Source of the DNA: Sulfurovum sp.
GTDB taxonomy: Bacteria; Campylobacterota; Campylobacteria; Campylobacterales; Sulfurovaceae
Reading direction: 5' to 3'
NCBI GenBank assembly: GCA_027083995.1
Contig: JALWME010000261.1
Location: forward strand, 1-9,140
DNA length: 9,140 bases
Positions 1-4,046 of this stretch are shown piece after piece (positions within the stretch are counted from its first letter, which is position 1; every line of letters starts with the position of its first letter). The notes beneath the pieces were generated by a model. It did not search any database. It worked only from the letters and a program-made list of their open reading frames with translations, and had not been told where the DNA came from. The position numbers were made by a program, and so were the translations under genes.

Positions 1-492
1 AAAAAATCTGTCAGATACGATGATAGTACGGGATTATCCCATACCCTTGAGGCAACAGTACTCAATGTTATTCCTAAACAAAAAGCAGCATCTATTGTTT
101 TTGATGCAGGACTCAATCAAGGCAATTGGGCTCCAGTCAATCCATTAAGTTATGAGTCAGTTTTGTTTGAAAATATACACATCATCGGTGATTCTCAAGG
201 TACCAAACAGCCAAAAGCTGGTCACATAGGTAACTCAGAAGCTAAAGTATGTGCTGATGCAATTTTAAGAAAGTTAAACAATGTGGCACTTTACAGTGCA
301 CCCAAAACAAATTCAGCGTGCTATAGTCCTACTTCAAGAACTGAAGCATCATGGCTCTCAGCAGTCTACAAGTATGACAATACGACACAGAGCATGGTAT
401 TAGCCAATAAAGGTGCCGGTCCATCAACAACAAAACATTACCAAGATATGTTTTTGTGGTCAGGAAATCTTTTTGCAGATACATTTCATTAA
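1..492 (+). CDS. fccB: Flavocytochrome c sulfide dehydrogenase, flavoprotein subunit (C-terminal 163 residues; 5' end outside window)
   Basis: The frame is open from base 1 to the TAA at 490-492, so this is the 3' part of a gene that begins upstream. FccB (also called SoxF) is a periplasmic FAD protein that oxidises sulfide and passes electrons to cytochrome c. The fragment shows the family's FAD-contacting stretch, IHIIGDSQGTKQPKAGHIGN, followed by SEAKVCADAI. After it comes NSACYSP, which matches the conserved NTCYS segment holding one cysteine of the redox-active disulfide near the flavin. The last ~60 residues (ASWLSAVYKYD, then MFLWSGNLFADTFH at the very end) fit the FCSD flavin-binding/dimerisation domain. 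The N-terminal Rossmann region and partner cysteine are not visible. A related sulfide:quinone reductase is less likely because of this C-terminal domain. Codon use is like the neighbours. No cytochrome subunit gene follows; it could lie upstream. Confidence 0.85.
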   Translation, partial: KKSVRYDDSTGLSHTLEATVLNVIPKQKAASIVFDAGLNQGNWAPVNPLSYESVLFENIHIIGDSQGTKQPKAGHIGNSEAKVCADAILRKLNNVALYSAPKTNSACYSPTSRTEASWLSAVYKYDNTTQSMVLANKGAGPSTTKHYQDMFLWSGNLFADTFH

Positions 493-569: not shown

Positions 570-588
570 TAACACTCCAGTAACACTC
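570..588 (+). promoter_or_regulatory. Direct repeat TAACACTC x2 at 11-bp spacing, candidate OmpR-type response-regulator box
   Basis: TAACACTC occurs at 570-577 and again at 581-588, separated by CAG, so the copies are exactly 11 bp apart. OmpR/PhoB-family regulators usually bind tandem half-sites one helical turn (10-11 bp) apart, often in place of the -35 box. The second copy ends 7 bp before a TACAAT -10 candidate (596-601). The nearest downstream gene encodes an OmpR-family regulator, so an autoregulatory site is a natural inference. No binding data are available. Confidence 0.45.
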
Positions 589-595
589 TTTTAGT

Positions 596-601
596 TACAA
601 T
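596..601 (+). promoter_or_regulatory. Candidate -10 box (TACAAT) for the two-component operon
   Basis: TACAAT is preceded by TTTTAGT. The cysS promoter candidate has the similar context TTTTAGA-TATAAT. No -35 hexamer is evident, as is common for sigma-70 promoters in this group, and the 11-bp direct repeat occupies that position. Transcription from here would give a leader of about 110 nt before the regulator gene. A closer start near the AT-rich stretch at 667-690 is an alternative. Confidence 0.4.
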
Positions 602-718: not shown

Positions 719-1345
719 ATGAAACTCTTATTATTAGAAGATGACCATATACTTTCTGAGACGCTTCAACTCTTTCTCACACGTGAAGGCTACACAGTAG
801 ATGTTGCACTGGACATGGAAGAAGCCGAAGATTTAACTTATGAAAATCACTATGACCTCTACCTTTTTGATATTAACTTACCCTATGGCAGTGGTTTGGA
901 ACTTTTAAAAAATTTACGTCATGCTGATGACCACACCCCCACTATATTTATCACCGCACTTACAGATATACACACTATGTCTCAGGGTTTTGCCTTGGAT
1001 GCCATTGACTACATCAAAAAACCTTTTGATCCCCAAGAACTACTTATACGTCTTAAAGCTAAATTGAAAAATGATACACTTTGTCATGGTAACATTGAGT
1101 TTGATAAGGAAGCACAGGTATTACGCAAAGATGGCAAAATCATTGATTTAGGCAATGTGCAATACAAAATCTTTGTAAAACTCATTGAAAATTGTGGTCG
1201 TGTTGTTACAAAAAATGAACTTTATACATGTCTAGAACATATTTCTGATGCAGCATTACGTGTAGCTATTACCAAAATCAAGCAACGCTTAGATGTAGAC
1301 ATAAAGAATATTCGAGGAAAAGGGTATATCATTGAAAAGATATGA
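719..1345 (+). CDS. OmpR-family two-component response regulator
   Basis: The product is a 208-residue cytoplasmic DNA-binding response regulator with a receiver domain (residues 1-~115) and an OmpR/PhoB winged helix (~125-208). Visible receiver residues are the acidic pocket E7-D8-D9, phospho-acceptor D51 in LFDINLPYGSG, the switch Thr T79, and K101 of the KKPF motif. The C-terminal domain contains the usual layout, with GRVVTKNEL before the recognition helix (ALRVAITKIKQRL) and the wing ending in IRGKGYII. A weak AAGG (705-708) lies 10 nt before the ATG. The gene overlaps the kinase gene by 14 nt and very probably acts with it. The full set of receiver residues suggests ordinary phosphorylation control. 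It cannot be assigned to a named regulator. The 11-bp direct repeat upstream is a candidate binding site for it. Confidence 0.93.
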   Translation: MKLLLLEDDHILSETLQLFLTREGYTVDVALDMEEAEDLTYENHYDLYLFDINLPYGSGLELLKNLRHADDHTPTIFITALTDIHTMSQGFALDAIDYIKKPFDPQELLIRLKAKLKNDTLCHGNIEFDKEAQVLRKDGKIIDLGNVQYKIFVKLIENCGRVVTKNELYTCLEHISDAALRVAITKIKQRLDVDIKNIRGKGYIIEKI

Positions 1346-2387
1346 AAAAGAGTCATTTTTTAAAAACTTTTTAGTATTTTTTACCTTACTTGAGGCACTT
1401 CTAATTTTACTTTTTTTAGAGCTATATACCAAACAACACAGTGAATACAAATATCATATATATAAAACAATGCAAGTGTGTAATTACACTATGAAATGTA
1501 ATCAATTTACTTTTGATTTTGCCCAAAAAGATAAAAATAAACTCAATACACTTTACGATGATGATGGACTCTATAGTTTTTTTGTCATACCTCAATCAGA
1601 AAAGTTTAATATAAAAATTTTATACCCAAAAGAGCAGTATCATAAAGACTTAGTCCAGATTAAGCGTGTAATTTTATTTCAATTTATTTTTGCTACTTTA
1701 CTACTATTTATGATATCACTTATTTTTACCTTTTATAGTTTAAAGCCCATACGAAAAGCTTTACAGCTTAATGATGAATTTATCAAAGACATACTACATG
1801 ATTTTAATACCCCAATCACTTCTATGGTACTTAATATACAAATGTTCAAAAAAGAAAAAGGGGAAGACCGCTACATAAAAAAAGTCTCTCATAGTGTAGA
1901 TACAATTTTACTTTTACAAAATAATCTCAAAAGTTTTTTAGATCATTCACCTTCTCAAAATATACAAATTGATATTGCTTCTTTAGCAAAGAAACGTCTT
2001 GATACCATACAAAATATTTATCCTAAACTCACCTTTGTTTTTACACAATATGACGACTTGATAAAAATCACCAATGAGGATATCATAACCAGAATATTGG
2101 ATAACCTACTCTCTAATGCTGCAAAATATAATAAACCCAAAGGCATCATAGAACTCATAATACAAAATGATATACTATACATAAAAGATACAGGCAAAGG
2201 CATTCAAGATGTAAATAAAATATTTCAACGTCATTACAAAGAACAGGATAGAGGTCTTGGGCTTGGTTTGCATATCGTGCAAAAACTAAGCGATGAACTC
2301 AACATAAAAATAAAAATAAAGTCTGTCATCGGTGTAGGTACTGAATGTATACTTGACTTTAGCTTTTTGGAGAATGGAATAAAATGA
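1332..2387 (+). CDS. Membrane sensor histidine kinase, partner of the upstream regulator (TTG start)
   Basis: This is a 351-residue inner-membrane kinase that should phosphorylate the preceding regulator. TM1 spans ~11-32 and TM2 ~112-135, enclosing a periplasmic loop of ~80 residues that contains C50 and C56 (CNYTMKC). The HisKA motif is LHDFNTPITSM with H156 and the phosphatase-type T160. The HATPase_c motifs are the N box DNLLSNAAKY (N262), G1 DTGKG (286-290), an F-box Phe (F298) and G2 GLGLGL (308-313). Only ~20 residues separate TM2 from H156, so there is no full HAMP domain. The start is TTG at 1332: AGGAAAAGGG (1315-1324) sits just upstream, and no in-frame ATG exists before residue 47, which lies beyond TM1. 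The ATG at 1342 is in another frame and stops quickly. The gene overlaps its regulator by 14 nt and the next gene by 4 nt. The ligand is unknown. Confidence 0.9.
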   Translation: MKRYEKESFFKNFLVFFTLLEALLILLFLELYTKQHSEYKYHIYKTMQVCNYTMKCNQFTFDFAQKDKNKLNTLYDDDGLYSFFVIPQSEKFNIKILYPKEQYHKDLVQIKRVILFQFIFATLLLFMISLIFTFYSLKPIRKALQLNDEFIKDILHDFNTPITSMVLNIQMFKKEKGEDRYIKKVSHSVDTILLLQNNLKSFLDHSPSQNIQIDIASLAKKRLDTIQNIYPKLTFVFTQYDDLIKITNEDIITRILDNLLSNAAKYNKPKGIIELIIQNDILYIKDTGKGIQDVNKIFQRHYKEQDRGLGLGLHIVQKLSDELNIKIKIKSVIGVGTECILDFSFLENGIK

Positions 2388-3235
2388 ATAAAATATTATT
2401 ATTTATCTTTTTAACATTACCTCTTTTTTCCAATATTGATGCACGCATAGAAGCTATACAAAATGCCCCTGTAGCAGAACGCTTTAAACTTATGAATGAC
2501 TTTAAAAGAGAAATGGTCAAGATGAAGGAAAGGGATAGAATACAGGCAATGCATAAAATACAATCTATTACAGTAAGCAAACATGCAAAAAAGGCTTTTC
2601 GGGAATTACGCGGCAAACCCTCAAGAACAAGACTCACAAAAAAAAGAAACCCTTCTAATACCATCTCTAAAAATGGACTAAGCCATGGTAAGCGAAATGA
2701 CAGAAATGATGTTCGAAATATTGTTCGAGACAGTAACAGAAATGACGACAGAAATGATGTTCGAGATGATAGCAGAAATGACAGCCATGATAACAACAGA
2801 GATAACGATAGAAATGACGACATAAACGATGTTCGAGATGATAGCAGAAATGACAGCCATGATAACGACAGGGATAACAACAGAGATAACGATAGAAATG
2901 ACGACAGAAATGATGTTCGAGATGATAGCAGAAATGACAGCCATGATAACGACAGGGATGACGACAGAGACGACGATAGAAATGACGACATAAACGATGT
3001 TCGAGATGATAGCAGAAATGACAGCCATGATAACGACAGGGATGATGAAAGAGATGACGACAGAGACGATGACAGAGACGATGACAGAGATGATGACAGA
3101 GACGATGACCATGACGACGACAGAGACGATGACAGAGACGATGACCATGATGACGACAGAGACGATGACCATGATGACGACAGAGATGATGACAGAGATG
3201 ATGACAAGGATGACGACCATGATGACGATGATTAA
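2384..3235 (+). CDS. Secreted protein with 44 tandem Asp-rich tetrapeptides, function unknown
   Basis: The protein has 283 residues. Residues 1-~18 (MNKILLFIFLTLPLFSNI) form a signal peptide. Residues ~19-75 are charged and helix-prone (ERFKLMNDFKREMVKMKER). Residues ~76-106 are a basic linker rich in Lys, Arg and Ser. Residues 107-282 are exactly 44 tetrapeptides, mostly R/H-D/N-D/N-D/S/N, ending in 15 near-pure RDDD/HDDD-type units. The tail is strongly acidic and should be disordered; binding of divalent cations is plausible but inferred. The start ATG overlaps the kinase stop in an ATGA junction, with GGAGAATGGA upstream, which indicates coupled translation. The gene is therefore in the same operon as the two-component pair. 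The short helical domain followed by a low-complexity tail is only loosely reminiscent of small periplasmic partners of kinases such as CpxP/Spy; no family motif is certain. The reading frame is supported by the signal peptide and the overlap, not by family recognition. Confidence 0.8.
   Translation: MNKILLFIFLTLPLFSNIDARIEAIQNAPVAERFKLMNDFKREMVKMKERDRIQAMHKIQSITVSKHAKKAFRELRGKPSRTRLTKKRNPSNTISKNGLSHGKRNDRNDVRNIVRDSNRNDDRNDVRDDSRNDSHDNNRDNDRNDDINDVRDDSRNDSHDNDRDNNRDNDRNDDRNDVRDDSRNDSHDNDRDDDRDDDRNDDINDVRDDSRNDSHDNDRDDERDDDRDDDRDDDRDDDRDDDHDDDRDDDRDDDHDDDRDDDHDDDRDDDRDDDKDDDHDDDD
2702..3229 (+). repeat. 12-bp tandem repeat array (44 units) with 72/84-bp higher-order repeats
   Basis: The 528 bases consist of 44 x 12 bp. 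In the first part the 12-mers are grouped into longer units: 2738-2809 (72 bp) and 2810-2893, 2894-2977, 2978-3061 (84 bp each). Each contains the 39-bp core that begins GATGTTCGAGATGATAGCAG, at 2756, 2828, 2912 and 2996. Units 2 and 4 share ATA-AAC (Ile-Asn) where units 1 and 3 have AGA-AAT, suggesting a two-unit duplication. From 3062 on it becomes a simple (AGA-GAY-GAY-GAY)n type array with CAT replacing AGA at intervals. Because the period is a multiple of 3, copy-number change would keep the frame. The coding strand is purine-rich. Confidence 0.93.
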
Positions 3236-4046
3236 GAAAGTGTCTATACTGTTTTTTATTGCTGGATGCATAACTTATGCTGCAGATTTTAAAGATGCAG
3301 ATTTTGATGGTGTTCCCGATGCTACAGACGAGTGTCCAGACACACCTTTTCTACATGAAGTGAATGCCAAAGGTTGTACCACACAAATACTTATGCTCAT
3401 TTCTGACACCGTCACAGACAGTCTTGTATTCACATTAAAGTTTGGATATAGTATAAATGAAGATTTCAGAAATAGAAAAACCCAAAAGATAAGTAAAATT
3501 CGTATTGCATACTATAAAGATGATTGGGGTTATAGCTTGGGTACAGGTTACTACATGCATGATAAAAATAATGGACAGCTAGATACAACATTTAAAATAC
3601 GAAAAAGATTTAAACCAACTTCTAAGTTGAGAATAAGAATAGGTGCTTCATTAATATTTCCTACACGTGATTTTGCTGGTAACTATACAGATTTTTCGCT
3701 AACAACTTCTGCCAATTACTACCTATCAAAAAATGTTTCTTTATTTGCAGGGGTAAAACATACATTTAATAGAGATGAACAAATCTTTACTCCTCTTCAA
3801 AATAGAAGCAGTGCCTATGTTGGTGTAGGTTATTTCTTTACAAAAAATCTCTATGCAGATGTCTCCTTTGCTTATGCAGAAAGTAAATTTGTTATCGAAG
3901 ATGCTGCAAAATCCATAGGGGGTATTTTATCCTATGACATCAATGACAAGTGGTATACTACACTATCCTATAACCAGGATATACTGATAGATGATGGAGA
4001 TTCACATTATGCTTTAAATTTTACAATTGGATATAGACTATGGTAA
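3219..4046 (+). CDS. Outer-membrane beta-barrel protein with N-terminal thrombospondin type 3 motif
   Basis: The product is about 275 residues with a signal peptide (KKVSILFFIAGCITYA, then ADFKD). Next comes DADFDGVPDATDECPDTP, a calcium-binding thrombospondin type 3 repeat as found ahead of OmpA/OprF-like barrels, with two cysteines (ECPDTP and KGC) that could form a disulfide. The remaining ~210 residues show alternating beta strands with aromatic girdles (YSLGTGYYMH, YVGVGYFFTKNLYADVSFAYA) and end in YRLW, a terminal aromatic residue as in outer-membrane proteins. No C-terminal OmpA peptidoglycan domain is present. ATGs at 3219, 3222 and 3228 are in frame. 3219 is chosen because AAGGA (3206-3210) lies 8 nt upstream; 3228 (272 residues, MIKKVS) is the main alternative. 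Either start overlaps the end of the repeat gene, so translation is probably coupled. Exact function (porin, adhesin support, cation sensing) cannot be told. Confidence 0.85.
   Translation: MMTMIKKVSILFFIAGCITYAADFKDADFDGVPDATDECPDTPFLHEVNAKGCTTQILMLISDTVTDSLVFTLKFGYSINEDFRNRKTQKISKIRIAYYKDDWGYSLGTGYYMHDKNNGQLDTTFKIRKRFKPTSKLRIRIGASLIFPTRDFAGNYTDFSLTTSANYYLSKNVSLFAGVKHTFNRDEQIFTPLQNRSSAYVGVGYFFTKNLYADVSFAYAESKFVIEDAAKSIGGILSYDINDKWYTTLSYNQDILIDDGDSHYALNFTIGYRLW

What the first reader, a model, noticed from the sequence alone, without database searches (positions are those of the whole stretch)
719..4046. Overlapping operon joining a two-component system to an Asp-repeat secreted protein and a calcium-motif barrel
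Seen: four genes with every junction overlapping (14, 4 and ~17 nt), the last two with signal peptides and strongly acidic, cation-binding-like sequence (44 Asp-rich tetrapeptides; one thrombospondin type 3 motif). Known: kinase operons often include periplasmic partners that feed back on the sensor (CpxP, ZraP type), and type 3 repeats bind calcium. Inference: the set could be an envelope sensing and response module for Ca2+ or another divalent cation, with the repeat protein as buffer or ligand partner. I do not know of a described system with this composition.
Basis: partly seen in the sequence, partly recalled or inferred. Interest (0 to 1): 0.7.

Follow-up and report, generated by a model that had tools for sequence, protein, structure and literature searches.

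The report
Conserved sensor operon regulating surface cytochromes
The four overlapping genes are a real sensor-and-regulator unit shared by many Campylobacterota; a DNA signal in front of it suggests that it controls itself and, in relatives, electron-carrying proteins on the cell surface, while the striking aspartate repeat is only one lineage's version of a freely changing tail.

Summary
Confirmed: response regulator (RR), histidine kinase (HK), secreted protein with Asp-repeat tail (g3) and TSP3-barrel protein (g4) overlap in one unit. It is conserved: 48 of 80 HK-selected loci hold g3 and g4 beside the HK; 103 of 398 Campylobacterales genomes hold g3; 106 of 117 g3 hits examined have g4 within 800 nt. 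The cation-buffer idea is weakened: g3's constant part is a short helical domain; its tail is mostly acidic in Sulfurovum but Q/N/M-rich, Gly/Met-rich or 9-23 residues long elsewhere. g4's TSP3 loop is its most conserved part; one clade lacks the barrel. New: a box TAACACT-N4-TAACACT, perfect at 570-587, with TACAAT at 596-601. In 32 related loci it occurs 38 times (0-1 mismatch), three control patterns never. All 26 boxed non-RR genes there have a lipobox and 21 haem motifs, against 21 and 9 of 265 unboxed. But 11 of the 32 loci lack such a box. Best reading: an autoregulated envelope two-component system with a g3-g4 feedback pair and a surface-cytochrome regulon. Nearest described system in behaviour: C. 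jejuni DccRS (orthology untested).

The parts
570..587 (+). putative RR box, direct repeat TAACACT-N4-TAACACT (11-bp period)
   Evidence: 0 mismatches, 149 nt upstream of RR; only match in the window at up to 2 mismatches; pattern enriched in 32 related loci against 0 for three control patterns at 0-1 mismatch
596..601 (+). -10-like hexamer TACAAT, 8 nt behind the box
   Evidence: read from the sequence; same placement before RR in L003, L004, L005, L009
719..1345 (+). response regulator, OmpR/PhoB type
   Evidence: PF00072 89.3 bits and PF00486 27.4 bits, both over cut-off
1332..2387 (+). sensor histidine kinase, two predicted membrane spans and a small periplasmic part (by eye)
   Evidence: PF02518 56.5 and PF00512 29.5 bits, both over cut-off; relatives in Sulfurovum
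2384..3235 (+). g3: secreted protein; conserved helical domain (about residues 18-65) plus Asp-repeat tail
   Evidence: no Pfam or NCBIfam match
2736..3228 (+). 12-bp tandem array coding the Asp-rich tail
3228..4046 (+). g4: signal peptide, TSP3-like loop with two Cys, predicted 12-strand outer-membrane barrel (start 3222 also possible)

Best explanation
The four genes are an autoregulated envelope-sensing module. The HK senses the periplasm; its RR binds tandem TAACACT repeats that stand where a -35 would be and activates its own operon, hence g3 and g4, and in Sulfurovum also outer-surface c-type cytochrome lipoproteins. g3 (helical domain with a fast-changing disordered tail) and g4 (TSP3 domain on a 12-strand outer-membrane barrel) are products of the response that feed back on the kinase, as CpxP and ZraP do. 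Shown by computation: conservation, linkage, the box and what lies behind it. Inferred: that this RR is what binds the box, that g3/g4 act on the HK, and that the regulon serves extracellular electron transfer.
For: g3 and g4 beside the HK in 48 of 80 HK-selected loci; 106 of 117 g3 hits with g4 within 800 nt, 91 of 117 with RR or HK near. In 11 genomes where g3-g4 lie alone an HK of this family is present elsewhere in 11 of 11. Box: 16 perfect and 22 one-mismatch copies in 32 linked loci against 0 for three controls, perfect half-site pairs at 11-bp spacing 16 times. Box before RR in the window and five of those loci, before g3 in 20 clusters elsewhere. Boxed non-RR genes: 26 of 26 lipobox, 21 of 26 CXXCH, against 21 and 9 of 265 unboxed. 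Members of the HK family elsewhere adjoin small secreted proteins, once a true LTXXQ protein (46.1 bits).
Against: 11 of 32 linked loci have no box at 0-1 mismatch, and only 5 of their 27 RR-like ORFs are directly boxed; in some the RR follows a boxed gene directly (L001, L008, L015, L023). Across whole genomes the pattern is only modestly above its control (37 against 24 hits in 8 genomes; 61 against 34 in 10). Two HK clades lack g3-g4 beside them, and of 15 HK loci chosen for lacking g3, 7 showed a weak g3-like neighbour and 1 a g4 match. The loci are related, so counts are not independent. No binding, expression or phenotype data.
Confidence: 0.55

Rival explanations
1. Ca2+ or divalent-cation module: the Asp tail buffers or presents cations, the TSP3 loop binds Ca2+, and this sets kinase activity.
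For: TSP3 loop residues invariant in 30 rows; acidic tails in most Sulfurovum members.
Against: Tails are neutral, basic or 9-23 residues long in other lineages of the same module; the boxed genes are not cation transporters but lipoproteins, mostly with haem motifs.
Confidence: 0.2
2. g4 is a secretion channel of the FapF kind that exports the disordered tail of g3 to the surface; the TCS only switches this export system on.
Confidence: 0.15
3. g3 and g4 are pure output (effectors of the response) and never touch the kinase; linkage only reflects co-regulation.
For: The same linkage and box data.
Against: Small secreted proteins recur beside this HK family even where g4 is missing, which fits sensor partners but does not prove it.
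Confidence: 0.3
4. The box is read by another regulator (for example a paralogous RR); the RR here has other targets.
For: Similar boxes with an AT-rich spacer precede NosL-like and TonB-receptor genes, and paralogous HK loci carry weaker versions before their RR.
Against: Perfect copies concentrate on the operon's own contigs (16 of 25 in ten genomes) and stand before the RR or g3 themselves.
Confidence: 0.15

Closest known systems
DccRS of Campylobacter jejuni
   Same: [quoted passage not shown] PMC9449129)
   Different: orthology not tested here; no TSP3-barrel partner or cytochrome regulon is told in the passages seen
CpxAR-CpxP, ZraSR-ZraP, BaeSR-Spy of E. coli (recalled)
   Same: small secreted helical protein encoded as part of the regulon of its own TCS and thought to feed back on it
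   Different: g3 matches no LTXXQ model, has a variable low-complexity tail and an outer-membrane TSP3 partner
FapF amyloid secretion channel and COG4313 channels
   Same: predicted 12-strand barrel
   Different: a TSP3 loop stands N-terminally; sequence identity 9-13 %; linked to a TCS; other porins and autotransporters score close behind
TSP3-containing proteins of the OprF/OmpA kind (recalled)
   Same: DxDxDG loop followed by C...GC
   Different: here before a 12-strand barrel or alone in a small lipoprotein, not before an OmpA domain

Membership tests
OmpR/PhoB-type two-component system | receiver plus winged-helix output domain; HisKA plus HATPase kinase | tested here: met
   all four Pfam models over cut-off
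LTXXQ (CpxP/Spy/ZraP) family | match to PF07813 or a CpxP-like fold | tested here: not met
   no PF07813 match for g3 or for any of 34 rows among the families listed; Foldseek best E 2.4, none of the rows shown CpxP-like
LTXXQ (CpxP/Spy/ZraP) family | gene controlled by the cognate RR and product acting on the HK | tested here: inconclusive
   box before RR operon or g3; action on the HK not testable
FapF / COG4313 barrels | 12-strand outer-membrane barrel | tested here: met
   [not shown]
FapF / COG4313 barrels | Pfam match (PF13557 Phenol_MetA_deg for COG4313) | tested here: inconclusive
   window protein not listed; relative P0124 26.2 bits over cut-off 22
FapF | linkage to fap amyloid genes | not tested
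   no fap gene recognised in the window by the Pfam scan of eight ORFs; relatives not searched for fap genes
TSP type 3 repeat (PF02412) | Pfam cut-off of 25 bits | tested here: inconclusive
   window 18.1 bits; relative P0126 25 bits; loop residues invariant
TSP type 3 repeat (PF02412) | Ca2+ binding | not testable with these tools
   needs a binding assay
DccRS | orthology of HK/RR to DccS/DccR | not tested
DUF1104 (PF06518) | profile similarity of g3 | tested here: inconclusive
   hhalign probability 17 %, E 0.0015 over 43 columns

The most novel reading that the evidence does not exclude
g3 and g4 form an outer-to-inner-membrane sensor: g4's TSP3 domain and g3's helical domain report the state of the cell surface (a cation, a mineral or an occupied barrel, with g3's disposable tail as the probe) to the kinase, which then switches the production of surface multihaem cytochromes. 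This would be a dedicated regulator of extracellular electron transfer in Campylobacterota.
Probability: 0.18. Interest if true: 0.85.

Novelty: new variant of a known kind. Interest (0 to 1): 0.6.

Why it matters
It gives a conserved Campylobacterota two-component system of unknown signal a defined partner pair, a candidate DNA box and a candidate regulon, so that a role in surface electron transfer becomes directly testable. It also shows a secreted protein whose small domain is kept while its low-complexity tail is replaced wholesale between close relatives, which warns against reading function from such tails.

Tried and rejected
Family membership of g3: no convincing match in Pfam, NCBIfam or PHROGs. 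Kinship of g3 to DUF1104: hhalign probability 17 %, left open. Solved structures for g3's domain: nothing convincing by sequence (best E 0.051) or fold (best E 2.4). Asp repeat as the conserved element: rejected, as the tail is replaced in relatives. Sigma-70 consensus scan: 22 sites against 21.7 expected, uninformative. Rfam: no match at gathering score. DUF1104 in two Sulfurovum genomes: none, but the 14 control genomes rang nowhere either.

Papers. Searches returned nothing; one returned one planctomycete paper; 56, 57, 59, 71, 86 and 87 were seen as listings with abstract starts. None of these listings described this operon; most subscription papers are not held, so this does not show that it is unpublished. 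Passages only were seen of PMC9449129, PMC3156733, PMC5557850, PMC5447181 and PMC7118207. The DccRS paper itself was not held.

Limits and dropped rows. Of the g3 places listed, at least G137:C106, G285:C48, G133:C8, G081:C128, G231:C25 and G296:C160 were not fetched, and G001:C63 was seen only as L006. In one search, 26 of 117 g3 hits count as without RR/HK; for five of them (L103 twice, L106, L122, L156) a locus or contig end or a score threshold is the reason. Of the 11 g3 hits without g4 several lie at contig ends (L118, L145, L158, L191). Outputs were cut in the middle, and tables list the best rows only. The g4 profile also matches other TSP3 proteins (257 of 398 genomes at E 1e-5), so genome counts of g4 were not used. 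One search ran no control pattern.
Full report
What is there. The window (no whole genome held) carries at 719-4046 an OmpR-type response regulator (RR), a histidine kinase (HK), a secreted protein with an Asp-rich repeat tail (g3) and a protein with a thrombospondin-type-3-like loop followed by a barrel (g4). Overlaps are 14, 4 and 8 (or 14) nt. The repeat is a 12-bp array at 2736-3228 with 84-bp higher-order units. Long ORFs in other frames across the array look like by-products of the repeat. The named HK relatives are mostly Sulfurovum.

Is it conserved? An HK profile found 217 relatives in genome contigs, of which the best 80 were kept. Of these 80 loci, 49 carry g3 and 48 carry g3 and g4 beside the HK. 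Of the other 31, L055 ends inside the HK; in the tree the rest lie in two HK clades, one in Sulfurovum (in most loci shown beside a nagA-like and a PTS-like gene) and one with Nitratiruptor. Independently, a g3 profile hit 103 of 398 Campylobacterales genomes. In 113 loci examined, 106 of 117 g3 hits have g4 within 800 nt on the same strand (53 overlapping, 49 within 0-100 nt, 4 further), and 91 of 117 have RR or HK near; of the 83 with both, 58 read RR-HK-g3-g4, 13 g3-g4-RR-HK and 6 g3-g4-RR. On a quick HK tree of 150 rows, linked against unlinked (where there was room to see) needs two changes; many rows were fetched because they hold g3, and the tree has long branches, so this is a lead rather than a proof of ancestry. 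In 11 Nitratiruptor-type loci g3-g4 lie without this TCS; all 11 genomes have an HK of the family elsewhere. Against universality: 147 of 398 genomes have the HK at E 1e-60, more than have g3, and in 15 HK loci picked because no g3 had been found, 7 show a weak g3-like neighbour (E 7e-8 to 4e-5) and 1 a g4 match.

A DNA box. Regions upstream of the RR showed recurring words such as AACACTC. They belong to a direct repeat TAACACT-N4-TAACACT of 11-bp period, of the kind OmpR/PhoB-type regulators bind (recalled), at some places three or four units long, often followed about 8 nt later by a -10-like hexamer. The window has a perfect copy at 570-587, the only match there at up to 2 mismatches, with TACAAT at 596-601. 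In 32 linked loci (310 kb, both strands) there are 16 perfect, 22 one-mismatch and 17 two-mismatch copies; the reversed pattern gives 0, 0 and 4, two permuted patterns 0, 0 and 3 and 0, 0 and 0. Perfect half-site pairs occur 16 times at 11 bp, once at 21, twice at 22 and at no other spacing from 7 to 23. In 26 loci of HKs without g3-g4 (239 kb) there are 0 perfect and 4 one-mismatch copies; in 17 Sulfurimonas-type loci 6 and 5, against 0 and 4 for the reversed pattern.

What lies behind the boxes. In the 32 loci plus the window, 33 box clusters lie before an RR (6, window included), a lipobox protein (26) or no ORF seen (1). Counting genes of the 32 loci, 26 of 26 boxed non-RR genes have a lipobox and 21 of 26 CXXCH, against 21 and 9 of 265 unboxed (Fisher p 1e-24, only indicative because the loci are related). 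They include proteins with 8 or 9 haem motifs; two of these that were tested match Cytochrome_C7 and C554 models. Against a simple picture, 11 of 32 loci have no box at 0-1 mismatch and only 5 of 27 RR-like ORFs there are directly boxed; in L001, L008, L015 and L023 the RR follows a boxed gene directly. Elsewhere, 48 clusters lie before g3 (20), RR (4), lipobox proteins (6, two with haem), others (13) or no ORF (5); this set was fetched largely around g3, so the g3 count is favoured. The 13 others include five DUF1104-like genes (by eye; one tested, below cut-off), g3-like genes and one LTXXQ gene. Genome-wide the pattern is sparse: 37 hits against 24 for the control in 8 genomes, 61 against 34 in 10 genomes, where 16 of 25 perfect hits lie on the operon's own contigs. 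Some with an AT-rich spacer precede NosL-like and TonB-receptor genes, perhaps for a paralogous regulator (names by eye).

How it most likely works. A signal at the envelope sets the HK; the RR acts on tandem TAACACT repeats and raises its own operon, g3-g4 included, and surface cytochrome lipoproteins. As products of the response, g3 and g4 are placed to report back to the kinase. This last step is inferred from CpxP, ZraP and Spy (recalled) and from the recurrence of small secreted proteins beside this HK family, once a true LTXXQ protein. What is sensed is unknown; Ca2+ through the TSP3 loop is possible and untested.

What is known. The closest described system in behaviour is C. [quoted passage not shown] Orthology was not tested. 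The paper searches listed under Tried and rejected showed no description of this operon. Verdict: a real, conserved variant of the kind 'two-component system with envelope partners', for which I found no description; the cation-buffer reading of the repeat is weakened, and a surface-cytochrome regulon is the new lead.

Noticed in passing
window 2997-3234 (+ frame of g4) and minus-strand ORFs 2359-3207, 2678-3271: The repeat array keeps other frames open, so gene callers can extend g4's start into it (P0122 is 290 aa with a Met/Thr-rich lead) and could call false antisense genes.
   Followed up: partly
L204:4179-4754, L194:2325-2645, L192:4465-4767: Relatives of this HK adjoin an LTXXQ protein (46.1 bits) or DUF1104-like proteins (26.3 bits in L194, 16.3 in L192, cut-off 25).
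   Followed up: partly
L214, L222, L232, L264, L268, L227, L262: TAACACT repeats with an AT-rich spacer, some of them before NosL-like and TonB-receptor-like genes in Sulfurovum-type genomes; perhaps the box of a paralogous regulator.
   Followed up: no
L071:8268-10086, L114:2859-4677, L140:101-1910: A second RR-HK pair sits directly beside the g3-g4 module in some Sulfuricurvum-type loci.
   Followed up: no
L164:6012-7424, L169:5852-7084: In Nitratiruptor-type loci the gene behind g3-g4 codes for a long secreted protein rich in Ser or acidic residues; in L165 a one-mismatch box precedes it.
   Followed up: no
window 1-492: The upstream gene (cut by the window) resembles the end of a flavocytochrome c sulfide dehydrogenase or sulfide:quinone reductase, below both cut-offs.
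   Followed up: no
L013:9824-10738 (minus): Repeated SIAYLCGEGCYN-like units in minus-strand ORFs; probably a repeat array in DNA rather than a protein.
   Followed up: no
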